A DNA stretch of 64,000 bases, taken from assembly GCA_949287835.1 (NCBI GenBank), contig CASEHV010000037.1:85986-149985 (forward strand). Reading direction: 5' to 3'. The notes below the pieces were generated by a model. It worked only from the letters and a program-made list of their open reading frames with translations, was not told where the DNA came from and ran no database searches. The position numbers were made by a program, and so were the translations under genes. The stretch is from an uncultured Helicobacter sp. (GTDB lineage Bacteria > Campylobacterota > Campylobacteria > Campylobacterales > Helicobacteraceae). Shown here in pieces: positions 12,327-60,999 of this stretch. Numbering within the stretch: position 1 is the stretch's first letter; each line of letters begins with the position of its first letter.

Positions 12327-12377
12327 AACAATCCTTCAGGGAAAAATACTTAAGATTGAAAACAAACTAAAAAAATG

Positions 12378-12383: not shown

Positions 12384-12420
12384 TGTAAGACATTTATATA
12401 AATGAAAGGCTGTGGGTTAA

Positions 12421-12855: not shown

Positions 12856-12906
12856 GATTAGAGTTTGAATCAAAGCTATTATATTACAAACTTATATTAA
12901 GGAGAG

Positions 12907-13515
12907 ATGATGAATATTTTAAAAGAACCATTTGGGCAGTATCGGACAAATGCTTATATTTTGCTATTTGATGGCTTTGAGTTTGTGATAGACCCTGGGG
13001 TAGATTCTACAGATTGGGTAATTAGTCATGCCAAAAATCTTAAGGCAATATTAATTACCCACGGACATTTTGACCATATATGGGACGTATCATCTTTGCA
13101 AAAGAAGACAAATGCACCCATATATTGCCCTAGCAAAGATTGCTTCATGCTTGAGAGCGATTGCTTTGAGCTAGGTCTTGAGGTATGCACTCCGACTTAT
13201 CGCGTAGATGATAATAAGGGCAGGACAACATTAAATATTAATGGCATTGATGTTACATATTGGCATTTTCCCGGGCATACGCCAGGTTGCTCTATGATAG
13301 AGATAGATGGGCATTTTTTTAGCGGTGATTTTATATTTCACAGAAGTATAGGTCGTTATGATTTTCCCTATTCTAATGAAAAAGATATGAAAGATTCCCT
13401 TCAACGATTTATGTTAATCGATAATGATTTTATCATTCACCCAGGGCATGGCATGGATACAAGTGTCTTTAGTGAGCAGAAAAATATTCCATTGTGGATA
13501 AGGCAGATTGGCTAG
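12907..13515 (+). CDS. Metallo-beta-lactamase fold hydrolase (glyoxalase II-like)
   Basis: 202 residues with the zinc motif ILITHGHFDHIWD (THxHxDH, about residues 57-64). Further zinc ligands lie in the HFPGHTPGCSMIEIDGHFFSGDFIF block (His near 118, Asp near 139) and the C-terminal IIHPGHGMDTS His. The length matches the small YcbL/glyoxalase II-like subgroup. It starts 51 bases after rnhA with GGAGAG before the ATG. The substrate cannot be told from sequence. The next gene begins directly after its TAG. Confidence 0.85.
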   Translation: MMNILKEPFGQYRTNAYILLFDGFEFVIDPGVDSTDWVISHAKNLKAILITHGHFDHIWDVSSLQKKTNAPIYCPSKDCFMLESDCFELGLEVCTPTYRVDDNKGRTTLNINGIDVTYWHFPGHTPGCSMIEIDGHFFSGDFIFHRSIGRYDFPYSNEKDMKDSLQRFMLIDNDFIIHPGHGMDTSVFSEQKNIPLWIRQIG

Positions 13516-14571: not shown

Positions 14572-16202
14572 ATAAAGCTAAGATGTTGTTAATAAAATTT
14601 AAAATTATTGCAATAATTATTTCTCTAATAGAGTGTACCTTTGCTTATAAAAATAGGAAATTAAATCGTTTTGTTACTTCTTTAAATCATATCATCACAC
14701 CAAAGAAGCTAAGAGAGAAAAATAATATTGCGTATAGAATCTACATAGGAATGATTTCCGCATTTGCATTTTGGCTACCATTATTTTCCTTTGCACTGCA
14801 TGAGTTGGTAAATATATATGTATATATGTGTGTTAGCATTATTGTAATTGTTGCGATGTGCTATGTTTTTTATAGAGCGTTTGCTGCAGCGAATTTATTA
14901 AAAAATCCCGCTTTTATATTATATGTTTTTACATTTCTTTCAATCTTTATTATGTCTTTGTTACATAAAAATTCATATATTCTAACGAGCCTTTTTTATC
15001 CGCTAACCATTTGTATTTTTCTATTTCTTGATAGGAGATTTAGATTCTGGTTTGGCTTTTTTGTGGGGGTATTTGGTCTTTATTGGATTACTTTATCGTT
15101 TAGATTCTATGGCATTGGTTGGGCGATACCATTTGTGATTATTTGTATTGGAATCGTGATAGCTATAATGATGTATTTTTTATTATTTTTTAATGATTTT
15201 AATATAAGATTTTTAGCATTACTTTCACTTTTTATCATTCACCCTTTTGGGTTTAACTGGCTAAATGTAGCCTATCTTAGCTCATATAGTGTTTTTAGTG
15301 CTTTTCATAGTCTTTTATTAATACCCATTGCGATATATGTCATATATAATATGAAATATGTATGGAAATATCTATCTTTTGTATTTCTTATATTATCCTT
15401 TAATATGAATTTTACAACACAAGAGCCGAAGCTAAAAATCAAAGTCGTGCAGACTCATTACGCACAGGATAATAAATGGAGTAAGGAATCCTTGCAGAAT
15501 ATCATTGATGAGAATCTAAAAGAGATACAAAGTGCCATTGATGAAAAATATGAAATAGTAGTGCTGCCAGAGACTTCATTCCCTTTTTCTATGCGAGAAG
15601 ACAGCGATTTATACTTTAGATTATTGGATATGAGTAGGTATATTATTATTGTATTTGGTGCTTTAAGGTATATGGATTATGACTTTACAAATAATCATCA
15701 CGATGTTATATCGCTAGATTCTATACAAAAGCAAGGCCCTGCATACACTACCTTAATACCAGATAGCTCTAAGGGATATTATAACTCTATTTTCATACTC
15801 TCAAATGCCACAGGTATAATAGCTGATAAAATTAATCTTGTCCCCTTTGGCGAGACCCTGCCATTTAATAGCATTCTAGCCCCGATATATGAAAAAATCA
15901 TGGGAGAAACATTTGGCTTTAATGCTGGAAAAGACACTGTAAAACTCTCTTTGCATAACAATATCATTTCACTTGCAAATTGCTATGAGGGGACTACTGA
16001 TATGCCTTATAAGGGAAATGTAGATTCTGTAATCATGCTTAGTAATAATGCGTGGTTTTATCCCTCACTGCAGCCTTTTTTACAAAAAATGATAATAAAA
16101 TATTATGCAGTGCTAAATCATAGCTTTGTATATCATTCTACAAATTACACCCAAAAAGCAATCATTTCTCCAAATAATTGGCTAGATTTTAACAAGAACT
16201 AA
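14568..16202 (+). CDS. lnt: Apolipoprotein N-acyltransferase
   Basis: 544 residues. Lnt adds the third acyl chain to the N-terminal cysteine of lipoproteins, with its nitrilase domain in the periplasm. Several TM helices fill residues about 10-285. The nitrilase-like domain follows, with the catalytic triad visible: Glu in VVLPETSFPF (about 333), Lys in ADKINLVPFGETLPF (about 421) and Cys in SLANCYEGTT (about 472). The usual final TM is not obvious, and the C-terminus (residues 500-544) is short. The start overlaps the GT9 gene by four bases. The last 14 bases overlap the convergent dxr gene. Confidence 0.88.
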   Translation: MNKAKMLLIKFKIIAIIISLIECTFAYKNRKLNRFVTSLNHIITPKKLREKNNIAYRIYIGMISAFAFWLPLFSFALHELVNIYVYMCVSIIVIVAMCYVFYRAFAAANLLKNPAFILYVFTFLSIFIMSLLHKNSYILTSLFYPLTICIFLFLDRRFRFWFGFFVGVFGLYWITLSFRFYGIGWAIPFVIICIGIVIAIMMYFLLFFNDFNIRFLALLSLFIIHPFGFNWLNVAYLSSYSVFSAFHSLLLIPIAIYVIYNMKYVWKYLSFVFLILSFNMNFTTQEPKLKIKVVQTHYAQDNKWSKESLQNIIDENLKEIQSAIDEKYEIVVLPETSFPFSMREDSDLYFRLLDMSRYIIIVFGALRYMDYDFTNNHHDVISLDSIQKQGPAYTTLIPDSSKGYYNSIFILSNATGIIADKINLVPFGETLPFNSILAPIYEKIMGETFGFNAGKDTVKLSLHNNIISLANCYEGTTDMPYKGNVDSVIMLSNNAWFYPSLQPFLQKMIIKYYAVLNHSFVYHSTNYTQKAIISPNNWLDFNKN

Positions 16203-18283: not shown

Positions 18284-18308
18284 TTTTTTTTTTTTTTTGA
18301 TATATAAT
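18284..18308 (+). promoter_or_regulatory. T15 tract next to -10 box: likely phase-variable promoter
   Basis: Fifteen T in a row (18284-18298), then GATA, then a perfect TATAAT (18303-18308), 33 bases before the outer membrane protein ATG. A tract this long changes length by slippage, and its position just upstream of the -10 would alter promoter geometry, as known for H. pylori sabA- and hopZ-type promoters. A homologous promoter with only T8 precedes the related pseudogene on the other strand (48035-48053). Confidence 0.75.
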
Positions 18309-41340: not shown

Positions 41341-42708
41341 ATGTATAGAATTTCTAAATATGTTAATGTAGCAATGCTATGTATGCTATCGTGTGCCTAT
41401 GCAGACCAGACCATAGCAGAGATAGGTGAGGGCGAGAACAAGCATAGCTTTTCAGTCGGAGTAGAGGCGAATTTCCTCTCAAGGACTGCCTTTAACTACA
41501 CAGATGTTAATGCTACAAACGCAAATGCAGGTAAATATCCGCAAGATAGCTTTGCCTACACTAGCATGAAGATATTTGGAGATTATAAATGGAGGGGGCT
41601 AAGTGCCTCTGTGGGCTACTTTGGCGGCGTGGCATATACGTATGTGGGCTGGTATCCTTTCATGGACGACCTTAATACAGGTATCCGCTCAGGCAAGGCT
41701 GTGGAGTTTCATAGATTCCTATTTTACAGAGCATTTGTGGGATATGATGATGATAATTGGTTTGTTAGAGCGGGAAGATTTGTGGTAGAAGATGATGATT
41801 GGCTAAAATCTACCGCACAAGGTGCTGAGGTTATTTATAAAAGAGAGAATTTCCTCATAAAAGCCTATGCACTAAGCCACCTTACTACCGCTTTTGGTGC
41901 ATGGGTGTGGGATTTTGTAACAGATGCTACCCCTACGGGAATCTATCACTTAGCTGGGCAGTATAATTACAGTATGAAAAATAGTGAGGATTCTGCGCCT
42001 TTGCTTGATTTTAAGATACGACCTTTTATATATTTAGTGCCTAGCTATTATGTCATGCCGGGCTTTAGTGCTAGATTCTCATACGCTGTCTCTAGCAATA
42101 TAAAGCTAAACACCTATGCTATTTTTACTTATGAGAGTTTTTTAAGCGATGCGAACAAGGCAAAGCTGCTATACCCCCTTGTGCCAACGGGTGAGAATGC
42201 CGCTAGTCTTTATATCCAGCAGGGTGCGACTTTGTTTAACAAATATGATGTCTCGATTGGATTCTATAAGAATTTTGGGAATTTTAATGCCATCTTTGGT
42301 AGATATGGGAATCCTGCAAATGTCAGTATCTATGATGGTAGCTTCTTTGCAAGTGTATGGCTAAATGACTTTTTGGCTAAAGATTCTCAGAGTATTTTGC
42401 TAAATGCTAGCACTAGCTTTTTTGATAAAAGAATGCTGGTTGCGGGATTTTATCGCTTTACATGGAATGATAGAAGTATAGAGAATACCGCAGGAGTCAT
42501 AGTCTCATATAATCTAACGCAAAATATTACATTTAGGGGAATCCTAGCATGGTATCTTGACACTACAAAGGCAGGGAATAATGCTAGATTCTGGATACCT
42601 GTCTCACAAGTGCCAGATGCATTACGCGGTCCTATAACAAATGTCAATACCCCAACCGTGCATGATGATAGGAGCTATTTTATGTTTAATATTATTGTTA
42701 GGATTTAG
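41341..42708 (+). CDS. Hof-type outer membrane porin
   Basis: 455 residues, with a signal peptide (about 1-21, AMLCMLSCAYA before DQT). The body matches the Helicobacter Hof family: FLSRTAFNYTDVNATNANAG near the N-terminus, KIFGDYKWRGLSASVGYFGGVAYTYVGWYP, GRFVVEDDDWLKSTAQGAEV, and a C-terminus FMFNIIVRI of alternating hydrophobic residues for a barrel. It is probably a channel for small nutrients. AGGAG lies before the ATG, with a candidate -10 CATAAT upstream (about 41269-41274). Its 3' end overlaps the convergent fucosyltransferase gene by 11 bases. Confidence 0.82.
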   Translation: MYRISKYVNVAMLCMLSCAYADQTIAEIGEGENKHSFSVGVEANFLSRTAFNYTDVNATNANAGKYPQDSFAYTSMKIFGDYKWRGLSASVGYFGGVAYTYVGWYPFMDDLNTGIRSGKAVEFHRFLFYRAFVGYDDDNWFVRAGRFVVEDDDWLKSTAQGAEVIYKRENFLIKAYALSHLTTAFGAWVWDFVTDATPTGIYHLAGQYNYSMKNSEDSAPLLDFKIRPFIYLVPSYYVMPGFSARFSYAVSSNIKLNTYAIFTYESFLSDANKAKLLYPLVPTGENAASLYIQQGATLFNKYDVSIGFYKNFGNFNAIFGRYGNPANVSIYDGSFFASVWLNDFLAKDSQSILLNASTSFFDKRMLVAGFYRFTWNDRSIENTAGVIVSYNLTQNITFRGILAWYLDTTKAGNNARFWIPVSQVPDALRGPITNVNTPTVHDDRSYFMFNIIVRI

Positions 42709-43849
42709 GTTTTTGGGTTAGGTGTTTTATACCTCTGCCAATGCTTCGTGGTAAATGCGAAACGCACTCTATTGTGTTTAATATTCCTAGGGCTAGTTTT
42801 ACATTTTTCTTTGAGTATTTATCTATTTTCTTTGCTATGGAGTTTATGGTGTGATTTTGCTTCTGACTTCTTACATTCATTTCATCTAGCGGTCTTCTAT
42901 ATGGTTTCTCCTGAGATAAAATATTATCTAGGAAGTCAAATGTTTTTTGTTTGTAATAATCAAATGGATTTATAGAATCTAAAAATACAGATTCCTGTAG
43001 CATAGCCATGTAGGCGTTATTGTCATTATCAATTCTTTTTACCTCATCTGCTAACTCCTCCATTGTATGAAAATTATGTGCGTTTATAAAAGATTTTGGA
43101 TTGATGAAATATTCTATAAAATGCCTAGAAATATTGGGGATACTACCATCAATTTTTATAGTATTCACCCCCCCCCCCCCCGTTGTTTGTGTTATTGTTT
43201 TATGTGTTTTATCAAGATGGCATCTAAGGCTTGTATCACCCCAGTATACAGGAATGCAACCAGCTAGAAATGAATCAAATAATTTCTCAGTTAAATATCC
43301 CGGATAACTAGCATTCTCAAAGCAAATATTAAATTTATATCCCCTTAGCCATTCTATTTTATCTTTTACCGCGCCACCTATGTTGTTATTCCAACGACCG
43401 CCAGAATCTACTTTTTTATAGCGTCCTAATATATCAAAAAATAATAATCTCTCCTTAGAGATTCCATTACTTACAACCATTCCACAGAATTTATCGCGTC
43501 CTTTGATATTGCGATTATTTAGAATCTCTGAATACAAATGTTCATTAAGAAAGCTTAATGGCAGACGCAAATGCCTATCATTAAAATCCATAAAATCAAA
43601 GTCGATTCCATAATCGCTTATAGCCCAATCTGTGCGATGATTCTCATGTGTGAAGAAAATCCTAACGCAATCATATTTTAAATGCTCTTCGCCAAATGAG
43701 CTATATATAATAAAATCGGGATTTCGTGAATATACAATGTCATATTTATCTTTTTCTAGCAGGATTTTTATTAGGGGATTATCATAGAAATTTTTTTCAT
43801 TATCTTCTATCCACCAATCTAGCACCCTCATGTATATGCGTTTTTTCAT
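42698..43849 (-). CDS. Alpha-fucosyltransferase, GT10 family, with phase-variable G tract
   Basis: 383 residues. GT10 enzymes add fucose from GDP-fucose; in H. pylori they make Lewis antigens on lipopolysaccharide. The catalytic core shows RIFFTHENHRTDWAISDYGIDFDFMD and YKFNICFENASYPGYLTEKLFDSFLAGCIPVYWGD (about 178-213), the GDP-fucose binding motif. A G14 run encodes glycines near residues 224-228. At the present length the frame continues to NPKSFINAHNFHTMEELADEV and a basic amphipathic tail (KKIDKYSKKNVKLALG...RSIGRGIKHL) like the membrane-attaching tails of H. pylori enzymes. G13 or G15 would stop translation at once. The gene follows exbB by eight bases. Confidence 0.9.
   Translation of the reverse strand: MKKRIYMRVLDWWIEDNEKNFYDNPLIKILLEKDKYDIVYSRNPDFIIYSSFGEEHLKYDCVRIFFTHENHRTDWAISDYGIDFDFMDFNDRHLRLPLSFLNEHLYSEILNNRNIKGRDKFCGMVVSNGISKERLLFFDILGRYKKVDSGGRWNNNIGGAVKDKIEWLRGYKFNICFENASYPGYLTEKLFDSFLAGCIPVYWGDTSLRCHLDKTHKTITQTTGGGGVNTIKIDGSIPNISRHFIEYFINPKSFINAHNFHTMEELADEVKRIDNDNNAYMAMLQESVFLDSINPFDYYKQKTFDFLDNILSQEKPYRRPLDEMNVRSQKQNHTINSIAKKIDKYSKKNVKLALGILNTIECVSHLPRSIGRGIKHLTQKPKS
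43168..43181 (-). repeat. C14/G14 homopolymer in the fucosyltransferase gene
   Basis: Fourteen C on the plus strand. Read on the gene strand, G14 keeps the frame open (GTG AAT follows). G13 gives TGA immediately after the tract; G15 gives a TGA six codons later. The gene is therefore switched on in this sequence. Confidence 0.95.
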
Positions 43850-50993: not shown

Positions 50994-51488
50994 TTAAGAA
51001 ATAGCCTTTAGCGCTTTGTCATAATCTGGCTCGTTTGTAATCTCATCGCAGACTTCTTGATACATAATTTTGCCCTCTGGATTTACCACGATAACCGCTC
51101 TTGTAAGCAACTCTCTCAATGGACCGCTTTGCATCAAAAGACCATATACCTTACCAAACAAAAGACCCCTAAAGTCGCTAACAACCTTCATATCCTTCAC
51201 ACCCTCAGCACCACAGAATCTACCAAGTGCAAAAGGCAAATCCGCAGACACAGAGAACATATCTACATTTGGCAGAGAAGCCGCCTTTTTATTAAACGCA
51301 TGAGTTTGCTTTTGACACACACCAGTATCAATGCTAGGCATAATGCTAATAACCTGCCACTTGCCACTAGCACCACCTACCACAACATCGCTAAGGTCAT
51401 TTCCAACTAAGCTAAGAGCAGGAGCGCTATCGCCTACCGAGAATGTCTTACCATATAATAGAACCTCTGTTCCTTTAAACTTTGGCAT
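50994..51488 (-). CDS. tpx: Thiol peroxidase (Tpx)
   Basis: 164 residues, an atypical 2-Cys peroxiredoxin that reduces peroxides with thioredoxin. The peroxidatic cysteine lies in MPSIDTGVCQKQTHAFN (about 60) and the resolving cysteine in ALGRFCGAEGVKDM (about 94). VVSDFRG and the C-terminal EPDYDKAL are also typical. TAAAGGAAT precedes the ATG. A Fur/PerR-like box lies 30 bases upstream (51518-51527). Confidence 0.95.
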   Translation of the reverse strand: MPKFKGTEVLLYGKTFSVGDSAPALSLVGNDLSDVVVGGASGKWQVISIMPSIDTGVCQKQTHAFNKKAASLPNVDMFSVSADLPFALGRFCGAEGVKDMKVVSDFRGLLFGKVYGLLMQSGPLRELLTRAVIVVNPEGKIMYQEVCDEITNEPDYDKALKAIS

Positions 51489-51517
51489 TTTAATTCCTTT
51501 ACAATAAATTTGAGTTA

Positions 51518-51527
51518 TGATAATGAT
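51518..51527. promoter_or_regulatory. Fur/PerR-like box between tpx and the radical SAM gene
   Basis: TGATAATGAT within TTATGATAATGATATAA, close to the Fur core GATAATGAT and similar to AT-rich PerR boxes. It lies in the 65-base gap between two divergent genes, over the likely tpx promoter. An oxidative-stress or iron regulator would make sense for tpx. Confidence 0.35.
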
Positions 51528-51553
51528 ATAAAGGAAACGTTCTAGGAATTTTT

Positions 51554-52408
51554 ATGAGATTTTATAAAATTTATGTCGAAATATCCGATATATGCAATCT
51601 TTATTGCTCATTTTGTCCAAGTGTGAAAAATACTCGCAAAGTCATGCCGCTATTTTTATTTGAAAAGATTCTAAGTGAGATAAGGGGGAGAGTTAGAATT
51701 GTAAGTTTGCATGTCTTAGGCGACCCGCTTTGCGTTGCAAATCTGCATGAGTATATAAACATTGCCAAACAATATAATATAAACCTTGACATTGTAAGCT
51801 CTGGGGTATATCTGCAAAGAGAGAAATTTGAGATTCTATGTAGTGAGAATATTCATCAAATTAGCTTTTCGCTAGATTCTGTATATGATAAAAATAATGA
51901 AAAAAGTCTATTAAAAAAATATGAAAAAAGCAATATTCACGAGGCTAGAGAGCAATATTTTAATATGATTTATGATTTTTATAGCTATTTAAGGGCGAAA
52001 AATAATAATACTTTTGTGAATCTTAGAATCTTTGGGAATCATGATTACAGCCATATTTTAGAGGTTTATAATGATTATGAGCTAGATTCTAAGAAGCGAA
52101 GAATTAGACTAGATTATCGCTTTTTCCTGCGTTTTGGTAAGAAATTTAGCTGGAATAATAAGGGGCAGATACATAGGAATAGTAAGCCATACTGCCATGC
52201 GAGTATCACTCAGTTATCTATTCTATCAAATGGCATTGTCGTGCCATGTTGCATTGACTGCGATGCCACAATGAGACTTGGAGATTTGCAGAATCAAAGT
52301 TTCAAAGAAATATTAGATTCTAAGATTTTTAATGATTTTAATCATTCGCAAATGCACTGTGTCAATCTACCCGATAAATGCCTATCATGCGATTTTTGGG
52401 GGGTTTGA
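51554..52408 (+). CDS. Radical SAM/SPASM protein
   Basis: 284 residues. The radical SAM cluster cysteines are C14, C18 and C21 in ISDICNLYCSFCPS (CxxxCxxC). A second cluster region at the C-terminus (YCHAS, VVPCCIDCDATMRLGDL, HCVNLPDKCLSCDFWG) fits a SPASM domain with auxiliary Fe-S clusters. Such enzymes modify peptides, sugars or other substrates. No precursor-peptide gene is recognisable next to it, so the substrate is unknown. It diverges from tpx and is followed by a 130-base gap before the restriction locus. Confidence 0.8.
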   Translation: MRFYKIYVEISDICNLYCSFCPSVKNTRKVMPLFLFEKILSEIRGRVRIVSLHVLGDPLCVANLHEYINIAKQYNINLDIVSSGVYLQREKFEILCSENIHQISFSLDSVYDKNNEKSLLKKYEKSNIHEAREQYFNMIYDFYSYLRAKNNNTFVNLRIFGNHDYSHILEVYNDYELDSKKRRIRLDYRFFLRFGKKFSWNNKGQIHRNSKPYCHASITQLSILSNGIVVPCCIDCDATMRLGDLQNQSFKEILDSKIFNDFNHSQMHCVNLPDKCLSCDFWGV

Positions 52409-52501
52409 AGTTGTGATTTTGAAGGAGTGTTAGGATTGCAAATTACACGCTATCCTAATCCAAATAGGCATGAAAGAATTTTGCTAAAATTAAAAGATTT
52501 G

Positions 52502-52507
52502 TATACT
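52502..52507 (+). promoter_or_regulatory. -10 box of the restriction-modification locus
   Basis: TATACT, 31 bases before the GTG start of the nuclease-methylase gene; AAGGAG (52526-52531) is the ribosome binding site, seven bases from GTG. Confidence 0.4.
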
Positions 52508-52538
52508 AATTTATATTCTTTTTATAAGGAGATTTTTC

Positions 52539-54500
52539 GTGAATGAGCAAATGAGTGCGGTGGCATTAGTAAGGAAATTTTTAGAGAAAGATGAAATTAA
52601 ATATGAAGAGCAAAGCAGTCAATATAGAGAGATTGATGAGGTTTTTAAAGGTGGGAGCAAAAGTGGCAAAGGCGGAAAGGGCTTTCCAGACTTCATCGCT
52701 TACTCTAAGGACTTCATCATTTTTATAGAATGCAAGGCAGACTTAGCTAAACATTGCAAACTAGATTCTCACAACATCATTTCTGATGACTTCAAACACA
52801 TTAAAGACTATGCACTAAATGGGGCGCTACACTATGGCAAATATTTCACGAAAAATAACAATACAGAGTATAAAAAGATTCTAGCCATTGGCGTAAGCGG
52901 GAGTGAAAAGCGATATAAAATCACGCCCATATACATTAGTGAGCGAGGCGATAGTAAGCAACTGCAAGATTTAATCAACTTCACGGATTTAAAGCAAGAC
53001 TTTATCACAGATTATTACAAACAAGAGATTCTAAATATACCGCCAGACACCGCAGAGCAGAAGCTAGAGATTGAGAAATTCGCCAAAAAATTACACGAAG
53101 ATTTACGCAATTATGGCGCCATAGCAGATAATCATAAGCCTTTAATCGTAGCGGGAATCCTCCTAGCCCTGCAAGAAATGGGACATCAAAATCTTAGTTT
53201 AGAACATCTAAATAATGATTCCATAAATACAGATGGCGATAAACTCTATAAACTCATAGATGACAATCTCAAGCGCTCCCAGCTAGAGCCGCAAGTAAAG
53301 CGAGATAAGGTTTTAAGCGAATTTTTGGTTATCAAAAACACTCAGAGAATCAACGAAAAAAGTGATATTGTAGATTCTAAAGGTATGCAAATTTCTACCA
53401 CGCCGCTTAAGTACTACGCCAAAGAAATCAAAAAAGAAATCTATGACAAAATGCAAAGCAGTGTGTATAAAACGAAAAAATGGGATATTTTAGGAATGTT
53501 TTATAGCGAATTTATGCGTTTTAGCGGAGGGAGCGGACAGACTTTAGGTATCGTGCTAACCCCTTTTCATATAACCGAGCTTTTCTGTGATTTGGTAGAT
53601 ATTAAGCCCACAGACAGAGTGCTAGACCCTACATGTGGCACGGGCGGCTTTTTGATTTCGGCTATGGATTATATGCTAAAAAATGCCAAAGACATAGCGC
53701 AGCAAAATCGCATTAAAAAAGAACAGCTTTTTGGCTATGAATTGCAAAGCTTTATGTTTGCAGTGGCTACGACAAATATGCTACTTAGAGGTGATGGCAA
53801 AAGCAATTTATTAAATGAAAATTTCCTCTCACAAAATCCTAAAAAACTCCAGATTGAACACAAAGCAAATATCGGTTTTATGAATCCTCCCTATTCGCAA
53901 GGCAAAATTGATAAAAGCTTGACGGAAATCGCCTTTAGTGAGCATTTGCTAGATTCTATCCTTGAGGGCGGTAAGGTCGTAGTTATCGTGCCACAAAGTG
54001 CGATGACAGGCAAAAGCAAAGAGGAAAAGGCAATCAAGGCAAGTATTTTACAAAAGCACACTTTAGAGGGCGTAATAACGCTAAATAAAGAAACATTCTA
54101 TGGCGTGGGGACAAATCCTTGCATAGCCGTTTTTACCGCTGGAATCCCTCACCCAAAAGAGAAACTCTGTAAATTTATCAACTTTGAAGATGATGGCTTT
54201 GAGGTGCAAAAACATAGGGGCTTGGTAGAAACAATCCATGCAAAAAGTAAAAAATCACATCTGCTAGATGTGTGGTTTGATAGAATGGAGGCTGAATCTA
54301 AATTTTGCGTGAAAACGACCATTGAGGAAAGCGATGAGTGGCTACATAGCTTTTATTATTTCAATGATGAGATTCCGAAGTTAAATGATTTTGAAAAAAC
54401 AATGGCAGATTATCTTACCTTTGAGTTTAATATGATAACACACGGGCGCGGCTATCTCTTTGGGCTAGAGGAAGAAACAGAGGAAAGCAAAGAGGGGTAA
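52539..54500 (+). CDS. Fused restriction endonuclease and N6-adenine methyltransferase (BcgI-like)
   Basis: 653 residues, about the size of the BcgI RM subunit. The N-terminal nuclease domain has a PD-(D/E)xK motif: D51 in GFPDFIAY, and E64 and K66 in IIFIECKAD. Helical linker to about 290, then the HsdM-like methyltransferase: QTLGIVLTPFHITELFCDL, motif I VLDPTCGTGGF (about 360), motif IV NPPYSQGKID (about 449, N6-adenine type) and LEGVITLNKETFYGVGTNPCIAVFT. Cutting and modifying in one chain with a separate specificity subunit is the type IIB/BcgI plan, rather than classical type I (no HsdR here). Starts with GTG. The Abi-like gene follows after seven bases. Confidence 0.85.
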   Translation: MNEQMSAVALVRKFLEKDEIKYEEQSSQYREIDEVFKGGSKSGKGGKGFPDFIAYSKDFIIFIECKADLAKHCKLDSHNIISDDFKHIKDYALNGALHYGKYFTKNNNTEYKKILAIGVSGSEKRYKITPIYISERGDSKQLQDLINFTDLKQDFITDYYKQEILNIPPDTAEQKLEIEKFAKKLHEDLRNYGAIADNHKPLIVAGILLALQEMGHQNLSLEHLNNDSINTDGDKLYKLIDDNLKRSQLEPQVKRDKVLSEFLVIKNTQRINEKSDIVDSKGMQISTTPLKYYAKEIKKEIYDKMQSSVYKTKKWDILGMFYSEFMRFSGGSGQTLGIVLTPFHITELFCDLVDIKPTDRVLDPTCGTGGFLISAMDYMLKNAKDIAQQNRIKKEQLFGYELQSFMFAVATTNMLLRGDGKSNLLNENFLSQNPKKLQIEHKANIGFMNPPYSQGKIDKSLTEIAFSEHLLDSILEGGKVVVIVPQSAMTGKSKEEKAIKASILQKHTLEGVITLNKETFYGVGTNPCIAVFTAGIPHPKEKLCKFINFEDDGFEVQKHRGLVETIHAKSKKSHLLDVWFDRMEAESKFCVKTTIEESDEWLHSFYYFNDEIPKLNDFEKTMADYLTFEFNMITHGRGYLFGLEEETEESKEG

Positions 54501-54507
54501 AGCATAT

Positions 54508-55182
54508 ATGGAGCAAATACAAAGACTCTTTAGCAAAGAACGATTACAAAGCTATGAGAATCAAGAACAACATTTTGCAAATTTTTTCCTCATTGGCAAT
54601 ATTGCCCCTGCTATTGGTATGTTAGAAGTGATATTAAGAAATAGGATAGATGAGGTTTTAAGTAAAATAGATTCACAATGGCTCTATAAAGAAGCACCTA
54701 GAAACATAGGATTAAAAATAGACACAAAGCACACAGATGGACATCAAATAATATCACATCAAAGCTTAGGTTTTTGGTTAAAAATAGTGGAATACTATAG
54801 GATACATAATAGAATCTTTGCTAAGGATTTTTTGGATTGCTATACATTCAAAGACTATTATCATCAAAATAAAAAGAGATTTAAAAGTGGGACAAAATTA
54901 CAAAATTATCAAAAAGTTACTCTTATACTACGGCTTTTTATAAACCTTAGAAATCGTGTCTTTCACTTTGAGAATCTCTATAAACTCAACGCCGATAAAA
55001 AACCTAGACTAAGTGCCTTTATTACAAATGCACACAATGAAAAATTTATCGTCAATTTAGAACCAGATAAAATTATGCAATTTTTATATGACTTATTGAA
55101 ATATTTTGATACTACACTAGCACAAAAAGTTTGTGGAACATGTAAAGCGTGGGAGAAAAGCATCTCCCCGAACACAGAATAA
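54508..55182 (+). CDS. Abi-like HEPN-domain protein inside the restriction locus
   Basis: 224 residues, resembling Abi_2/AbiD/F-type abortive-infection proteins. Opening: MEQIQRLFSKERLQSYENQ, then GNIAPAIGMLEVILRNRIDEVL, usual for the family. The motif LRNRVFHFENL (about 147-157) contains R-x4-H, the catalytic signature of HEPN ribonucleases. Such proteins cut RNA when triggered by phage, stopping the host cell. It sits between the nuclease-methylase gene (seven bases) and the specificity gene (40 bases), all co-oriented. The arrangement recalls anticodon nucleases (PrrC, RloC) nested in type I systems: a second line of defence if restriction fails. Activity and trigger are inferred. Confidence 0.65.
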   Translation: MEQIQRLFSKERLQSYENQEQHFANFFLIGNIAPAIGMLEVILRNRIDEVLSKIDSQWLYKEAPRNIGLKIDTKHTDGHQIISHQSLGFWLKIVEYYRIHNRIFAKDFLDCYTFKDYYHQNKKRFKSGTKLQNYQKVTLILRLFINLRNRVFHFENLYKLNADKKPRLSAFITNAHNEKFIVNLEPDKIMQFLYDLLKYFDTTLAQKVCGTCKAWEKSISPNTE

Positions 55183-55222
55183 TTGTATCATGTTTTATAA
55201 AATAAATCAAGAAAGGGAATAT

Positions 55223-57139
55223 ATGCAAGAAACAAAGCAAAGTTTAGAATCTTTGGAGTGGAGAGATTCTAGGATTGGGGATATATTTGTGTTAACTCGT
55301 GGTAAAAGACATATAGAAATAGATAGGAAAAAAGGTAAGATTCCATATTATTCAGCAAGCAGTATAAACAATGGATTGACGGACACGATAAGCAATCCAC
55401 TTTTTACCACAAAAGATAAGTTAATTATTAGCACTTTTTGTGATGCGTATTTTGTATGTGGCGAATTTACCGCCAGTGATGAAATCACAATATGCGATAA
55501 TCCAAATGTAAATCTTTATAATGGGCTATTTATCGCCCAAATCATTAAAAATAATGCTTCAAAATATGCCTTCGGCAGAAAAGCTTTTATGGAAAGATTG
55601 CAAAAACAGATTCTACTCCTCCCCACAGATTCCAAAGGACAGCCACACTGGGAATTTATGGAATCTTTTATGAAAGAGCTAGAACAAAAAAAGATTCAAA
55701 AGATTTTAGACTACTATAACAAAACATATAGCACAAACAACGGGGGGGGGGGGGGCAATATCCTCTCTGCTTTTAATCGCACCCATTATAAGACCTCAGA
55801 ATCTAAACTTCCTTACCTCTCTAAAGATGCAGCAAAGCAATCTTTCCTTGAGGGTAGCCTAATGGAGATTGCAAAACACGAACTAGCTTTAGAATCTTTG
55901 CAGTGGAGAGAGTTTAGAATCAGCGATATATTTGACAAAATAGAAAAAGGAAAATGTAAAAATTTCAATAAAGAAACAAACGAGAGTACAAAGGGTGTAT
56001 CTTTTTTATCGGCTACAATCAACAATAACGGTGTAAGTGCGTTTGTAGAAAGCAATCATCTTTTACAGAAAGGTAATTGCATTATGTTTATAAATCAGGG
56101 CGATGGTGGTGCTGGTTATGCAGTGTATAAGTATGAGGATTTTATAGCCACCACAAGTTGTTCCTTTGGATATGCCAAATGGATTAATAAATACACTGGT
56201 TTATTTGTCGCTTCTATTTTGTGTCGCTTTAAAGAAAAATATTCTTTTGGCTATGGGCGGACAGAAGCTAGATTAAAAAATGATATTCTACTCCTCCCCA
56301 CAGATTCCAAAGGCAACCCAAACTGGGAATTTATGGAATCTTTTATGAAAGAGTTAGAATCTAAACATCTTACAAAAATCCTAGCATACTACAATCACAA
56401 AGCCCACGCTAATAACGGGGGGGGGGGGGGGGCAACAACAACCTTTAATTATTCGCAATATTTGGATTTTATCAACTCTGCATTGGCTAAAGATTCTAAA
56501 AATACCCAAGCAAAGAATCAAAACTCTAAACAACCCCTACCACATAAGCAGGGTAGCCTAATGACAAATCGCATTATGGAAAATCTCATACTTAATGCCG
56601 AGATTGGTGACTGTGAGTGGGGCGAGTTTTATCTAAATGAAATCTTTACGACCATACAACGAGGCAAAAGGCTTACTAAGGAAAATCAAAAAGAAGGCAC
56701 TAGACCCTATGTTTCCTCTAGCAAAGCTAATAATGGCGTGGATAATTTTATTAGCAATGATTATGGCGTGAGGATTTTTTCACATTGCATTAGCCTAGCA
56801 AATAGCGGGAGTGTGGGCAGTGCCTTTTTCCATGAATATGAGTTTGTAGCAAGCGACCATATCACGATTTTACACAATGAATCTTTCAATAAATATATCT
56901 ATCTTTTTATGCTTCCTATCATTAATCGCTTGAGTGAAAAATATAGCTTCAATCGTGAAATTAATGACGATAGAATAAAAAGAGAAAAAATCCTCCTCCC
57001 CAAAACAAAAGATAATACCCCAGACTTTGCCTTTATGGAAAAGATTATGAAAAGCCTAGAATCTAGCACCTATGCTAAGGTTATAAACTATTATCAAAAC
57101 CGCCTAGGCGCCAATATCGGGGGGGGGGGGGGTAAATGA
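55223..57139 (+). CDS. Specificity subunit with three target-recognition modules and three poly-G tracts
   Basis: 638 residues in the present frame; ordinary BcgI-type S subunits have about 340. I choose ATG at 55223 (MQETKQSLESLEW) because AAAGGGA precedes it; the upstream frame overlaps the Abi gene. Three homologous modules: 1 (1-172, LESLEWRDSRIGDIF), 2 (from M214, LESLQWREFRISDIF), 3 (from M447, CEWGEFYLNEIF). Each ends with a shared helical spacer such as LLPTDSKGQPHWEFMESFMKELE. After each spacer comes a poly-G tract (G14 at residue 174, G16 at 399, G14 at 633). The third tract now leads to a stop (GGT AAA TGA), leaving a fourth module (57133-57653) untranslated. Each module is one half-site recogniser, so tract lengths set the DNA target. 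Confidence 0.88.
   Translation: MQETKQSLESLEWRDSRIGDIFVLTRGKRHIEIDRKKGKIPYYSASSINNGLTDTISNPLFTTKDKLIISTFCDAYFVCGEFTASDEITICDNPNVNLYNGLFIAQIIKNNASKYAFGRKAFMERLQKQILLLPTDSKGQPHWEFMESFMKELEQKKIQKILDYYNKTYSTNNGGGGGNILSAFNRTHYKTSESKLPYLSKDAAKQSFLEGSLMEIAKHELALESLQWREFRISDIFDKIEKGKCKNFNKETNESTKGVSFLSATINNNGVSAFVESNHLLQKGNCIMFINQGDGGAGYAVYKYEDFIATTSCSFGYAKWINKYTGLFVASILCRFKEKYSFGYGRTEARLKNDILLLPTDSKGNPNWEFMESFMKELESKHLTKILAYYNHKAHANNGGGGGATTTFNYSQYLDFINSALAKDSKNTQAKNQNSKQPLPHKQGSLMTNRIMENLILNAEIGDCEWGEFYLNEIFTTIQRGKRLTKENQKEGTRPYVSSSKANNGVDNFISNDYGVRIFSHCISLANSGSVGSAFFHEYEFVASDHITILHNESFNKYIYLFMLPIINRLSEKYSFNREINDDRIKREKILLPKTKDNTPDFAFMEKIMKSLESSTYAKVINYYQNRLGANIGGGGGK
55742..55755 (+). repeat. Poly-G tract 1 (G14) in the specificity gene
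   Basis: G14 fuses modules 1 and 2. One G fewer (G13) leaves a frame that stays open until a TAA at 55860-55862 overlapping the module-2 ATG (TAATG, 55860-55864). One G more (G15) stops after about six codons. Confidence 0.95.
56417..56432 (+). repeat. Poly-G tract 2 (G16) in the specificity gene
   Basis: G16 fuses modules 2 and 3. With G15 the frame runs open to TAA overlapping the module-3 ATG (TAATG, 56559-56563). With G17 a TAA comes after about four codons. Confidence 0.95.
57119..57132 (+). repeat. Poly-G tract 3 (G14) in the specificity gene
   Basis: G14 gives AAA TGA, ending the protein. G15 gives TAA at once. G13 or G16 gives GTA AAT GAT GAG and fuses module 4 to the protein. Confidence 0.95.
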
Positions 57140-57653
57140 TGAGTTAGAAGCTTTAGAGTGGAGGGAGTTTAGAATCTCTAGTATTTTTAAGAATTATCAC
57201 GGAAAAAGACTTAATCAAAATAATAGAGTAGCTGGGAATATCCCTATGCTTACTGCTGGTGAAAACAATAACGGCATTAGTAGCTTTGTGAGCAATGAAA
57301 ATATGCCTTTATTTAAAGATTTTATCTCTATTGATATGTTTGGAAACGCCTTTTATCATAAATACAAGGCAACAGGAGATGATAATATTTATTTTTTTAT
57401 TAATAATGATTTATCTTTTTATGTGAAGCTCTTTGTTGTGTCTTGCATTAATATGCAGAAAAATAAATTTTCTTACGGCAAACAATTTAGACAACAAAAT
57501 GCTGATAATATGAAAATTCTCCTCCCCATAGATTCCAAAGGACAGCCAAACTGGGAATTTATGGAATCTTTTATGCGAAAGATAGAAAATAAACAGCTTA
57601 TTAGTTATCTAAGAGTCCTTGATAAAGGGAGTAAATTAGATAGTGGATTATAA
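57133..57653 (+). pseudogene. Fourth target-recognition module, currently out of frame
   Basis: In the frame reached by G13 or G16 this encodes VNDELEALEWREFRISSIF, a recognition domain, and the spacer LLPIDSKGQPNWEFMESFMRKIE, then stops at 57651-57653. It is homologous to modules 1-3 and has no stop within. It lacks a start codon of its own before the domain (ATG ATG AGT TAG at the junction fails), so it needs fusion through tract 3. It is best seen as a switched-off part of the specificity gene rather than a dead gene. A separate gene starting at an internal ATG (57246) is unlikely because it would cut the domain. Confidence 0.8.
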
Positions 57654-57764
57654 AACTTTTGGGACTAATTGCGAGTTAAAGCAATATATATTTTATTGAA
57701 AGTAAATAAAATCAGTTCTAATCTAAAATAATAAGTCTATAAACATGCTTAGGAGTCAGTAATC

Positions 57765-57782
57765 TGTGTGAATAATCACACA
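57765..57782. repeat. Perfect inverted repeat between the S gene and the small RHH-like gene
   Basis: TGTGTGA (57765-57771), ATAA, TCACACA (57776-57782): 7-bp arms, 4-base loop. It is 25 bases past the end of the small leftward gene. No T run follows, so it could be an operator or a weak terminator. Confidence 0.4.
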
Positions 57783-57806
57783 ATATAAGTAGAAAAATAA
57801 TAGGTA

Positions 57807-58031
57807 TTAATAACCTTTATAATCAAGATAAGATTCTAAAACATTGCTTATAACTCTTTTTTGTGCTATTCCGCTAATTCTACAATATTTCTTAAATCTG
57901 TCTGCTAAATCCTTATTTATCATAAAAGAAAATGCTACTTGACTACCATAATCGCTTACAGATTCACCTTTATTATTTAGATGCTCGGCAAAGGACTCTT
58001 TTTCTTTTGTTCTGTTATCTTTTTCACTCAT
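57807..58031 (-). CDS. Small ribbon-helix-helix-like protein
   Basis: 74 residues. The first 30 are charged and probably flexible (EKDNRTKEKESFAEHLNNK). The rest, VAFSFMINKDLADRFKKYCRISGIAQKRVISNVLESYLDY, has the strand-helix-helix pattern of RHH (CopG/Arc-type) DNA-binding proteins: a short beta strand, a helix around DLADRFKKYCRISG and a second helix RVISNVLESYL. RHH proteins act as small repressors or plasmid/toxin-antitoxin regulators. It neighbours the restriction locus end-to-end. No toxin partner is adjacent. Assignment by pattern only. Confidence 0.5.
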   Translation of the reverse strand: MSEKDNRTKEKESFAEHLNNKGESVSDYGSQVAFSFMINKDLADRFKKYCRISGIAQKRVISNVLESYLDYKGY

Positions 58032-58185
58032 AACAACACCTCTTAAAATTGAATTGAGTTATCATTATAGCAAACATTAACAAATCAAACAATTATTTTA
58101 AAAAGAAATTTTATAAAAGTTTATAAAAAATATTACGCAAATTTAATTAGCAACTTTTTACTAATTAAACAGTATATAGCGGAGA

Positions 58186-59346
58186 TTAAGCGTATTTAAC
58201 CTTTCTTAATTCACCCATCACTTTTATGTAGTATTTCATTTGCTCTACTGTCCCAAGTGTGATTCGACAGAAATTATCGTATTTAGGGAATTTCCTGCCT
58301 ACCATAATATTATAATTTTTCATTCCCTCATAGAATTTATCAAAATCACCATTTATCTCATGGAAAACAAAGTTACCGTGAGAAGGCGCATATCTCAATC
58401 CAACAGAATCAAGATACTTCATAAGTAGCTGTTTCGATTTTATATTAGCATTGATGCAATATTGTTTAAAATTAAAGTCATTTAACGCCGCGACACCACC
58501 GAATACGGCAAACGCATTGATACAATCTAGCTGCAAAAATTCACTAATAGCTCTTTTTAAATCTGGACTTGAAATCGAATACCCAACTCTAAGACCTGCT
58601 AAACCGTAGATTTTTGATAAAGTTCTAACGACTATGAGATTTTTAATCCCACCTTTTACCATGTCAATGCCACTTCTAAAATTCCTATCTGTAACATACT
58701 CTGCATAAGCCTCATCTAGTAGGAATATTGTGCTATCTTTTGCATTTCTAACCCATGAATATAAATCATTTGCTCTGATTATGCTACCTGTGGGGTTGTT
58801 TGGATTACAAATATAAACTAGAGATATGCCATCAAATGAACGCTCTGCTTTTTTCATAGCATCAATGTCAAACTCAAATTTCCTATCCAAATCAATTTTT
58901 ACAACCTCTATATCGAATGCTTTAGCATACATCTCTACAAATTCAAATGTTGGGTCCGCCACAACTAATCTCAAAGGTTTATTTTGACTGTTAGCCATTT
59001 TGTATGCCGCATATACAGATGCCTGCAAAATTCCAGATGAACCGTTACTTATGCAGAGCATATTTTCCCTGACAGAATAGAGTGATGCAATAGTTTTATA
59101 TAGCTCTTCTTCGATTCTATATGGGTATAAATTAGCTTGTTCTAAGTTGCTTTGTATAGCACTTTTTACCCTTTGTGAATAACCGTGCATATTTTCGTTT
59201 GAGTTAAGTAATAAAGGTCTGTCTCTAGTTGGCTTACTAAAGACAGCACTTCTAGCATTTAGCGGGGATAATAAAGAGCCGACTGCAAGGGCACCCATAA
59301 TACCACCGATTTTAAACATATCACGTCTATTCATAGCATTTTGCAT
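58186..59346 (-). CDS. Tat-exported PLP-dependent aminotransferase (HisC-like fold)
   Basis: 386 residues. Class I/II aminotransferase motifs: CISNGSSGILQASVYAAYK (PLP phosphate region), VYICNPNNPTGSII, FLLDEAYAEYV and the Schiff-base lysine in VVRTLSKIYGLAGLRVGYSIS, resembling histidinol-phosphate aminotransferase. Unusually it has a twin-arginine leader: NRRDMFKIGGIMGALAVGSLLSPLNARS (residues 6-33; RR motif plus hydrophobic stretch), so it should be exported folded with its cofactor to the periplasm. A periplasmic HisC-like enzyme cannot serve histidine synthesis; its substrate is unknown. The start could be M1 or M5 (MNRRD). Confidence 0.82.
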   Translation of the reverse strand: MQNAMNRRDMFKIGGIMGALAVGSLLSPLNARSAVFSKPTRDRPLLLNSNENMHGYSQRVKSAIQSNLEQANLYPYRIEEELYKTIASLYSVRENMLCISNGSSGILQASVYAAYKMANSQNKPLRLVVADPTFEFVEMYAKAFDIEVVKIDLDRKFEFDIDAMKKAERSFDGISLVYICNPNNPTGSIIRANDLYSWVRNAKDSTIFLLDEAYAEYVTDRNFRSGIDMVKGGIKNLIVVRTLSKIYGLAGLRVGYSISSPDLKRAISEFLQLDCINAFAVFGGVAALNDFNFKQYCINANIKSKQLLMKYLDSVGLRYAPSHGNFVFHEINGDFDKFYEGMKNYNIMVGRKFPKYDNFCRITLGTVEQMKYYIKVMGELRKVKYA

Positions 59347-59423
59347 AAGACTAACTCCTAATACAACATTAAACCGCCGTATTCTACAATAATTTTATCA
59401 AAATTGCAACTTAAAAAATTTGC

Positions 59424-59429
59424 TATAAT
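59424..59429 (+). promoter_or_regulatory. Extended -10 box of comM
   Basis: TGCTATAAT, an extended -10 (TGnTATAAT), 28 bases before the ATG of the ComM/YifB gene. Confidence 0.5.
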
Positions 59430-59457
59430 TATCAAAAAATAAAAGGACCCCACTACT

Positions 59458-60999
59458 ATGGTAAATAAAATCTTTTGTGCAACTCAAGATGGGTTGGATT
59501 CTAGGATTGTAGAGGTGGAGGGGACTTTTACGCGTGGGCTTCCTACATTTAATATCACAGGTCTTCCATCTAGCTCTATTAAGGAATCTCAGCATAGGGT
59601 TACAAGTGCGTTAAATAATCTAGGCATAGACTTTCCGCCGCTAAAGCTAAATATCAATCTCTCTCCCTCAGATTTGCCAAAAAGCGGTAGTCAATTCGAC
59701 TTGCCAATCGCCCTCATAATCGCAGCGAGTAAGGAGGCTTTATCGCTTAATTCGTGGTTTGCCTTTGGTGAGATAGGGCTAGATGGTAGTCTAAAGAATG
59801 TGAATCTCATCTATCCCATGCTACTTGACATTGCTCTGCATAGCCCGAATGCAAAGGTGATTCTGCCAAGTGAGGCAAGGGAGCTATTTAGCAAGATTCC
59901 AAACCTTAGCATGTGTTTTGCTAATAATCTACTAGAGGCTTTAGAGATTTTACGAAATGATAGTATTTCCGACCATAACCCCGAGGTTCATAGTAGAGAC
60001 TTTGACTTTAAATACTTTGAGATTAATGGTAAGAAATATTATTATCATGATAGTTTTGATTCAGATTTCTCAGAGATTAAAAATCAAGAAAGGGCGATAT
60101 ATGCGGCATTAATTAGCGTATGTGGATTCCATAACATACTCTTTGAAGGTAGTCCTGGTTGTGGAAAAAGCATGATTGCAAAGCGAATGCAAGATATTCT
60201 CCCCCCACTTAGCCTTAATGAAATGATAGAGTGTGTCAAACTGCAGGCATTCAGTGAGCAAAGCCTAGAGTATATTCCAAAAAGGAGTTTTCGCGCCCCT
60301 CATCAGAGTGCCTCTAAAGCCAGCATTCTAGGCTCTGCCTCGCAGAATAAAATCAATCCGGGCGAGATAGCACTAGCACATAATGGCATGATATTTTTCG
60401 ATGAGTTGCCATACTTTAAAAAGGATATTTTGGAATCTCTGCGTGAGCCTTTGGAGAATAATAAACTTGCAATCTCTAGGGTTAGTTCTAAGATTATTTA
60501 TGATACTTCATTTCTCTTTGCCGCAGCGATGAATCCCTGCCCATGTGGGAATCTCCTCTCTAGTAGCAAGGAATGTAGGTGTAAGGATTCTGAGATTCGC
60601 AGTTATAGAAATACTTTAAGTGAGCCGTTTTTAGATAGGATTGACTTGTATGTGCAAATGCAGGAGGTAGAGGCACCTAGCTCTTATAATCGCATGGATT
60701 CTAAGGGTATGCAAGAGATTGTTTTTAGTGCCTTTAGGGAGCAGATAGAGCGTGGACAGGTGGATAGTGCTGGTCGCATTATCTTTAATGGCAAACTAAA
60801 TGAAATGCAAAGTGATAGATTCTGTGTGCTAGATGAAAGTAGCCATGCCCTGCTAGAGCAGGCAAAGAGTAGATTCTCACTTAGCTATCGGGGTGAGCGA
60901 AAGATAAAAAAAGTCGCAAGGACCATAGCAGACATTAAGGGGAGTAAGCAGATTCAAAAAGAGCATTTGCTAGAGGCACTTAGCTTTCGGCGGGTGTGA
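59458..60999 (+). CDS. comM: YifB/ComM family AAA+ ATPase (Mg chelatase-like)
   Basis: 513 residues. The N-terminal domain DSRIVEVEGTFTRGLPTFNITGLPSSSIKESQHRVTSAL, with LNINLSPSDLPKSGSQFDLPIAL, is the YifB/ComM signature. The AAA+ core has Walker A EGSPGCGKSMIAKRM (about 230), FFDELPYFKKDILESLREPLE (Walker B) and AAMNPCPCGN. ComM is a helicase that promotes branch migration in natural transformation, fitting naturally competent Helicobacter. The final Mg-chelatase C-terminal segment (FSLSYRGERKIKKVARTIADIKGSKQIQKEHLLEAL) is complete. Confidence 0.92.
   Translation: MVNKIFCATQDGLDSRIVEVEGTFTRGLPTFNITGLPSSSIKESQHRVTSALNNLGIDFPPLKLNINLSPSDLPKSGSQFDLPIALIIAASKEALSLNSWFAFGEIGLDGSLKNVNLIYPMLLDIALHSPNAKVILPSEARELFSKIPNLSMCFANNLLEALEILRNDSISDHNPEVHSRDFDFKYFEINGKKYYYHDSFDSDFSEIKNQERAIYAALISVCGFHNILFEGSPGCGKSMIAKRMQDILPPLSLNEMIECVKLQAFSEQSLEYIPKRSFRAPHQSASKASILGSASQNKINPGEIALAHNGMIFFDELPYFKKDILESLREPLENNKLAISRVSSKIIYDTSFLFAAAMNPCPCGNLLSSSKECRCKDSEIRSYRNTLSEPFLDRIDLYVQMQEVEAPSSYNRMDSKGMQEIVFSAFREQIERGQVDSAGRIIFNGKLNEMQSDRFCVLDESSHALLEQAKSRFSLSYRGERKIKKVARTIADIKGSKQIQKEHLLEALSFRRV

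What the first reader, a model, noticed from the sequence alone, without database searches (positions are those of the whole stretch)
55223..57653. Four-module, three-switch specificity gene of a BcgI-like restriction system
Seen: four homologous target-recognition modules, each ending in the same helical spacer and linked by poly-G tracts G14, G16 and G14. Each tract sits at the same place after the spacer. At present modules 1-2-3 form one chain and module 4 is out of frame. Known: one or two recognition domains are normal for S subunits, and poly-G tracts in Helicobacter change length by slippage. Inference: the three tracts act as independent frame switches, so the cell line can produce S proteins with module sets 1, 1-2, 1-2-3 or 1-2-3-4, each giving a different methylation target. 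I know of no described S gene with three serial tracts.
Basis: partly seen in the sequence, partly recalled or inferred. Interest (0 to 1): 0.95.

Follow-up and report, generated by a model that had tools for sequence, protein, structure and literature searches.

The report
Serial frame switches regroup DNA-recognition modules
A Helicobacter restriction system carries one specificity gene with four DNA-recognition modules separated by three poly-G tracts, and slippage of these tracts is predicted to join, split or cut off the modules and so likely change which DNA sites the cell marks and cuts; many related genes in distant bacteria carry frame-shifting repeats at the same module joints.

Summary
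In detail: four Methylase_S modules with tracts G14, G16 and G14 at the joints, each 12 nt after a module; modules 1-2-3 are one chain, module 4 is out of frame. A fused restriction-methyltransferase (RM) gene lies upstream, so the layout is BcgI-like.

Two corrections. First, one G fewer at tract 1 or 2 leads to a stop that overlaps the next module's start codon (TAATG), so that state probably splits the protein instead of ending it; with tract 3 this allows eight module groupings, not four. Second, a single switch of this kind is already proven in H. pylori HpyUM032XIII.

New is the series. Among 80 named relatives found through the RM gene, all 35 three-module S genes carry a frame-shifting repeat (poly-G, poly-C, AT or AGCCG) at a joint, against 7 of 35 two-module genes. 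Repeat joints are in frame in 18 of 60 cases, near one third; repeat-free joints in 42 of 45. Two nearly identical copies in two genera differ in length by one G in such a tract. Four modules with three tracts was seen only here. No methylome was available, so specificity changes are inferred.

The parts
52539..54500 (+). fused restriction-methyltransferase (RM) gene, 653 aa
   Evidence: N6_Mtase Pfam 6.1e-33; PADLOC REase_MTase_IIG 1.1e-163 over residues 2-646; NPPY motif and a PD-x(n)-ECK stretch read by eye (motif names recalled)
54508..55182 (+). 224-aa ORF of unknown function between RM and S
   Evidence: no Pfam, NCBIfam or PADLOC match at 0.001; among the surveyed loci, relatives only in L035/L056, L036/L057, L038, L040/L059 and L055, the H. 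bilis group
55223..55741 (+). S gene, module 1 (recognition domain plus helical spacer)
55742..55755 (+). tract 1, G14; now in frame with module 2
   Evidence: -1 gives a 212-aa product ending at the stop that overlaps the module 2 start, +1 gives 184 aa
55850..55864 (+). possible restart site of module 2: GAGG, then TAATG (stop 55860-55862, ATG 55862-55864)
   Evidence: TAATG after the same GAGGGTAGCC in L056, L057, L059, L038 and L052 and G071
55862..56416 (+). S gene, module 2
56417..56432 (+). tract 2, G16; now in frame with module 3
   Evidence: protein P0001 is the 445-aa form predicted for -1 and reads back as G15
56550..56563 (+). possible restart site of module 3: AGGG, then TAATG (stop 56559-56561, ATG 56561-56563)
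   Evidence: database protein P0012 begins at this start
56561..57118 (+). S gene, module 3
57119..57132 (+). tract 3, G14; now followed by a stop (57137-57139); -1 fuses module 4 (809 aa)
57138..57653 (+). S gene, module 4, no in-frame start of its own near its head
   Evidence: Methylase_S 6e-15; HMM score 220; start scan

Best explanation
This is the specificity gene of a BcgI-like restriction system, with four recognition modules joined by three poly-G tracts that are predicted to act as serial frame switches, so that slippage likely regroups the modules into different S proteins and would change the DNA site that is methylated and cut. Shown by sequence: the modules, the tracts, the three reading registers of each joint, and the overlap of the -1 stop with the start of modules 2 and 3. 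Inferred: (a) register 0 at tracts 1 and 2 fuses neighbours; (b) register -1 ends the upstream piece at TAATG and the ribosome restarts on the next module; (c) register +1 ends translation a few codons after the tract and probably lowers the downstream modules; (d) tract 3 fuses module 4 at -1 and otherwise leaves it untranslated; (e) fused pairs read bipartite sites and a single module can pair with itself on a palindromic site, as shown for the one-tract H. pylori relative. Taking fuse or split at tracts 1 and 2 and fuse or stop at tract 3 gives eight module groupings.
For: Frames and product lengths: 184, 212, 408, 445, 637/638 and 809 aa from the main start; 195, 232, 424/425 and 596 aa from the module 2 start, 191/192 and 363 aa from the module 3 start. 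Variant alleles: P0001 matches this gene with tract 2 read back as G15 and ends exactly as predicted (ISRVA); P0012 has a 98% identical module 3, begins at the predicted module 3 start and is fused to a module 4 with a different core. Relatives: the split-state product is an annotated protein in H. aurati (P0192, ends SLRVA) and C. jejuni (P0126, ends FSLRMAS, which reads back to the ATGA overlap seen in L049 and L050 DNA). Survey of 80 named loci: 35 of 35 three-module genes carry a joint repeat against 7 of 35 two-module genes, nominal p 4.8e-13; repeat joints fused 18 of 60, repeat-free joints 42 of 45. L107 and L108 agree over 8290 nt with 2 mismatches and one 1-nt gap; tract 2 is G8 in one and G9 in the other. 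Fold: three modules each ending in a long helix, matching S subunits including that of Type IIB BsaXI. Mechanism precedent: HpyUM032XIII, split CYAN7TRG, fused CYAN7TTC (PMC4450513).
Against: No methylome, reads or culture of this strain was seen. The genome is a draft, and the listing masks P0001's source, so G15 against G16 could be two assemblies of one isolate. Restart is not proven: a codon-shuffling control shows that the open -1 register is ordinary for these linkers (20000 of 20000 shuffles open at joint 1, 3430 of 20000 at joint 2). Module 4 has no restart. Outside Helicobacter and Campylobacter no start was seen near the out-of-frame stop at the modelled joints, so the split state is not general. 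A three- or four-module S protein may not assemble well. In HpyUM032XIII no activity was seen without S1 (PMC4450513), so not every grouping need work. Two repeat joints (L063, L072) fuse in no register within one base.
Confidence: 0.75

Rival explanations
1. Only the first one or two modules matter; each tract is a plain on/off truncation switch and modules 3-4 are passengers.
For: The one-tract H. pylori system works with S1 alone (PMC4450513). The modelled Bacteroidales poly-G joints have no start within 60 nt of the out-of-frame stop.
Against: Modules 3 and 4 are intact, with full HMM scores. In P0012 module 3 is 98% identical and fused to a different module 4. Three-module genes are common and all 35 surveyed keep a joint repeat.
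Confidence: 0.15
2. The array is mainly a store of recognition domains for recombination; conserved spacers and tracts guide domain exchange, and frame switching is a side effect.
For: Similar cores sit at different module positions in relatives: window module 1 is 73% identical to L052 module 1 and 70% to L049 module 2, module 4 is 75% to L062 module 1 and 72% to L059 module 2. Domain movement in S genes is published (PMC3077401, title and start of abstract in a search listing only). G001 and G071 share module 1 (100%) and, by eye, module 3, but differ in module 2.
Against: It does not explain why the repeat units differ by clade yet shift frame, nor why registers sit near one third. Both processes can run together.
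Confidence: 0.3
3. The present tract lengths are sequencing or assembly artefacts, or transcription slippage gives all forms at once so that DNA tract length matters little.
For: Draft assemblies; long homopolymers are error-prone (recalled).
Against: The architecture recurs in many assemblies, in a one-contig genome (G006), and with AT and AGCCG repeats. Slippage in RNA was not tested.
Confidence: 0.1

Closest known systems
HpyUM032XIII, BcgI-like system of H. pylori UM032 (PMC4450513; passages and the whole Discussion section read)
   Same: fused RM protein, S modules parted by a poly-G tract, split and fused states with different methylated sites, shown in E. coli
   Different: two modules and one tract (G12 split, G11 fused); here four modules and three tracts, with start codons overlapping the -1 stop at two joints
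HP1471/HP1472 and JHP1364/JHP1365 (Hpy99XXII), BcgI-like systems of H. pylori (PMC3936762; section 27 read whole, other passages)
   Same: RM fusion plus an S gene with one G repeat (14 in frame, 13 not)
   Different: one tract, described as preventing full translation; no serial joints described there
NgoAV Type I system (PMC9577141; passages read)
   Same: poly-G at the end of a half-S gene; losing one G fuses two half genes and changes the site
   Different: Type I with separate hsdM and hsdR; one tract, two half-S genes
JHP1422 three-domain Type I S subunit (PMC3936762; passages read)
   Same: three recognition domains in one S protein serving two sites; different domain sets give different sites
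   Different: no tract between the domains is described in the passages seen; Type I
JHP1272 / HP1353-HP1354 Type IIG enzymes (PMC3936762; passages read)
   Same: two homopolymer tracts in one gene, the second changing specificity
   Different: single-chain enzyme, the second tract adds a C-terminal recognition domain; no module array

Membership tests
BcgI-like (Type IIB/IIG with separate S) | endonuclease and N6-adenine methyltransferase fused in one chain | tested here: met
   PADLOC REase_MTase_IIG 1.1e-163 over residues 2-646, N6_Mtase 6.1e-33; nuclease motif by eye only
BcgI-like (Type IIB/IIG with separate S) | separate S gene beside the RM gene, Methylase_S domains | tested here: met
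   (Specificity_II 4.9e-60); one ORF lies between RM and S
BcgI-like (Type IIB/IIG with separate S) | cuts on both sides of a bipartite site; A2B make-up | not testable with these tools
   needs purified protein
BcgI-like (Type IIB/IIG with separate S) | sequence relation to BcgI itself | not tested
   the BcgI sequence was not fetched; the name rests on gene layout and on the H. pylori papers' use of it
Type I R-M (hsdRMS) | separate hsdR motor subunit | tested here: not met
   no motor-type ORF seen in the list for 51000-60500 (read by eye); nuclease and methyltransferase are fused; the rest of the genome was not searched for one
phase-variable (repeat-switched) S genes such as HpyUM032XIII and NgoAV | frame-shifting repeat at a module joint giving fused and unfused frames | tested here: met
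phase-variable (repeat-switched) S genes such as HpyUM032XIII and NgoAV | tract length varies between relatives or isolates | tested here: met
   G16 window against G15 read back from P0001; G8 against G9 in otherwise near-identical L107/L108; isolates of one culture not seen
phase-variable (repeat-switched) S genes such as HpyUM032XIII and NgoAV | methylated motif changes with tract state | not testable with these tools
   needs a methylome

The most novel reading that the evidence does not exclude
BcgI-like specificity genes are a widespread, recurrently built combinatorial switch: beyond a core pair of recognition modules, further modules sit behind frame-shifting repeats whose unit differs by clade (poly-G, poly-C, AT, AGCCG, AG), and reading frames at these joints have drifted to near one third in frame. 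The window's gene is the most extended case seen: three serial tracts, four modules and coupled restarts let one gene reach eight S-protein groupings by DNA slippage alone, a multi-state epigenetic and defence switch without any recombinase.
Probability: 0.55. Interest if true: 0.85.

Novelty: new variant of a known kind. Interest (0 to 1): 0.72.

Why it matters
Switching of restriction specificity is known by DNA inversion or other recombination and by a single slipping tract. A gene with serial tracts and restart codons would give many specificities from slippage alone, each reversible on its own, which would spread a clone over many defence and methylation states. The wider pattern, that a third module in the surveyed genes comes with a joint repeat and that such joints are in frame about a third of the time in distant bacteria, makes the idea testable in many laboratory-friendly species and means that annotated S genes of this family are often snapshots of one state.

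Tried and rejected
Plain reading of the four forms 1, 1-2, 1-2-3, 1-2-3-4: rejected as incomplete after the -1 stops were found to overlap start codons. Selection for an open -1 register: codon shuffling did not support it (open in 20000, 3430, 7837, 6198 and 20000 of 20000 shuffles for window joint 1, window joint 2, L052, L049 and L050); for L056, L057, L059 and L038 the script's search string did not match, so those four were not tested. The idea that three modules are odd: rejected, 35 of 80. A solved-structure sequence match for the S protein: none at E up to 1. Papers of which I saw passages only: PhasomeIt lists nine phase-variable R/M groups in Campylobacter; the H. canadensis repeat paper describes C-terminal switching and never uses the word restriction; C. 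coli BfR-CA-9557, Bacteroides fragilis group and Bibersteinia (which names one BcgI-like pair without frameshifts): no serial S gene in the passages shown. Literature absence rests on ten searches of an open-licence library; most subscription papers are missing. Protein searches: one search lists 120 of 273 hits, all 20, one search lists 120 of 167; one search showed no closer allele of module 1 than 71% identity. Registers were modelled only for poly-G joints; the C, AT, AG and AGCCG joints were scored only as fused or not. Rows left out: modules under HMM score 30 or with 100 positions or fewer were not counted; 10 of 80 loci had no joint, several because the contig ends; the 80 loci are the best 80 of 330 relatives and all were found with two short RM peptides used as probes. 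Related loci are not independent, so p values are nominal. Searches were script errors, redone.

Full report
What is there. The window lies in a draft genome of 1.72 Mb in 37 contigs. At 52539-54500 lies a fused restriction-methyltransferase (RM) gene, then a 224-aa ORF of unknown function, then the S gene at 55223-57653. The S gene has four Methylase_S modules and tracts of 14, 16 and 14 G. Each tract starts 12 nt after a module's end. Modules 1 to 3 are in one frame; module 4 is in another.

The three registers of each joint. Tract 1: as assembled, modules 1 and 2 are fused; one G less ends at a TAA whose last base is the A of an ATG (TAATG) that starts module 2, with GAGG 8 nt before it; one G more ends 21 nt after the tract. 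Tract 2 behaves the same way, with TAATG at module 3 (and a stop 16 nt after the tract at one G more). Tract 3: as assembled the chain stops at once, one G less fuses module 4 (809 aa), one G more stops. Module 4 has no start of its own in frame near its head. So joints 1 and 2 can be fused, split with restart, or cut; joint 3 can be fused or cut. Fuse or split at two joints and fuse or stop at the third gives eight groupings, from 1-2-3-4 to 1 + 2 + 3. Restart by coupling is inferred from the overlap and the purine stretch before it.

Alleles in databases. A protein search found P0001, 445 aa, 100% identical to the window's protein up to tract 2, which reads back as G15; it ends at the predicted stop. 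Its DNA was not seen and its source is masked; its contig (32,734 nt) is not the window's (149,985 nt), so it comes from another assembly. P0012 starts exactly at the predicted module 3 start, matches module 3 at 98%, can hold at most about seven G where tract 3 would be, and is fused to a module 4 with another core (46% to the window's) but nearly the same C-terminal end. In the H. bilis group, proteins with modules 97-100% identical to those of L056, L057, L059 or L038 are found in other joint states: P0070 has modules 2 and 3 fused, P0121 has the end of module 1 fused to module 2. H. aurati P0192 ends at the split-state overlap of its gene, and C. jejuni P0126 has the tail that the L049/L050 linker would give.

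Family survey. Of 121 genomes of the family, 19 have a relative of the RM protein at 1e-60 and 16 of these, the window's included, are 61% identical or more. In those 16, joint tracts of seven or more G were counted on fetched stretches: three tracts in the window's genome only; two in seven (G001, G002, G003, G006, G007, G071, G095); at least one in three (G005, G115, and G058, whose gene is cut by a contig end); none between full modules in five (G059 with one module, G081 with G6, G096, G098 with G5, G113). In G098 a G8 run lies before a remnant third module. The junction motif AGGGTAGCCTAATG occurs in 9 of 121 genomes, twice only in the window's, with no hit for the reversed control.

Wider survey. 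A scan of one genome per species with an RM alignment of five sequences returned the best 80 of 330 relatives, all with record titles. Because the scan used RM peptides, the loci were not chosen by tracts; some of the 80 are the family genomes above. Modules were found with an HMM of twelve modules. Of 80 loci, 35 have three modules, 35 two, 9 one and 1 none; none has four. All 35 three-module loci have a repeat (G or C of 7 or more, AT or AG of 6 or more units, AGCCG of 4 or more) at one joint or more, 18 of them at both; 7 of 35 two-module loci do (Fisher p 4.8e-13). With another cut (8 or more for any single base) 57 of 105 joints carry a repeat, three of these being A8 runs: 57 repeats in 6470 nt of joints against 172 in 1,033,172 nt elsewhere, most of the latter A or T runs of 8 or 9. 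Units differ by group: G in Helicobacter, Campylobacter, Bacteroidales, Neisseria dentiae, Avibacterium and a few others; C at some Bacteroidales second joints; AT in Streptococcus, Veillonella, Anaerococcus, Peptoniphilus, Fenollaria, Ezakiella and two MAGs; AGCCG in Moraxella; AG in a Campylobacterales MAG.

Frames drift at repeat joints. Of 60 repeat joints 18 are fused in the assembly, which fits one third (binomial p 0.68); of 45 repeat-free joints 42 are fused. By unit: G 9 of 39, AT 5 of 13, C 2 of 5, AGCCG 2 of 2, AG 0 of 1. The loci share ancestry, so the p values are nominal, but the contrast is large. Bacteroides mediterraneensis L107 and Mediterranea massiliensis L108 share 8290 nt with two mismatches and a single one-base gap; their second tracts read G8 and G9, which places module 3 in and out of frame. 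Whether that base is real or an assembly difference was not tested.

Fold. An AlphaFold model of the 638-aa chain (26 sequences, mean pLDDT 73, pTM 0.48) shows three modules of similar secondary structure, each ending in a helix of about 30 residues, with low-confidence linkers around the tracts. Foldseek's best matches are S subunits of Type I enzymes, with that of the Type IIB enzyme BsaXI at rank 9. The relative placement of modules is not reliable at this pTM.

What it works like, and what it is. It is laid out as a BcgI-like system; its relation to BcgI by sequence was not tested. The closest tested case is HpyUM032XIII: with the tract at G12 the first half-S alone gives a palindromic site CYAN7TRG, and fusing the halves gives CYAN7TTC (PMC4450513, passages, Discussion). 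Other H. pylori BcgI-like S genes have one G repeat (PMC3936762), a three-domain Type I S subunit serves two sites depending on which domains are present (same paper), and NgoAV shows the same fuse/split switch in Type I (PMC9577141). So the switch principle is known. What was not found in the papers searched is an S gene with serial tracts, the stop-start overlaps at the joints, or the regularity that third modules come with a frame-shifting repeat.

Limits. No reads, isolates or methylomes of this organism were seen. The restart step has no direct support beyond sequence and database proteins, and the codon-shuffle control shows that the open -1 register is not itself unusual. Stop-start overlaps were seen only in Helicobacter and Campylobacter loci. 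That the surveyed genera span several phyla is recalled, not looked up.

Noticed in passing
L045 (G000:C28), 6022-7530: A second S gene in the same genome, next to a different methyltransferase gene, has G14 between its two modules and G10 just after module 2 close to the contig end; a further module may lie beyond the break.
   Followed up: partly
window 43168-43181: C14 tract inside the minus-strand ORF 42698-43849, which reads like a fucosyltransferase-type glycosyltransferase (recalled, no family search run), a likely phase-variable surface gene.
   Followed up: no
window 54508-55182: ORF without Pfam, NCBIfam or PADLOC match between RM and S; among the surveyed loci, relatives only in the H. 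bilis group.
   Followed up: partly
L107 and L108, about 6535-14823: An 8.29 kb stretch with this R-M system is nearly identical in two genera and differs in length by one G, suggesting recent transfer followed by slippage.
   Followed up: partly
L142 (G098), 2447-3456: The tract is worn down to G5 with modules fused; a G8 run and a remnant third module follow. The proteins read from this locus look like H. mustelae P0085.
   Followed up: partly
L039, L044, L147: Another R-M family in the same organisms, with part of the recognition modules fused to the methyltransferase, also has G13 between its later modules.
   Followed up: no
window 18284-18298: T15 run outside the region studied.
   Followed up: no
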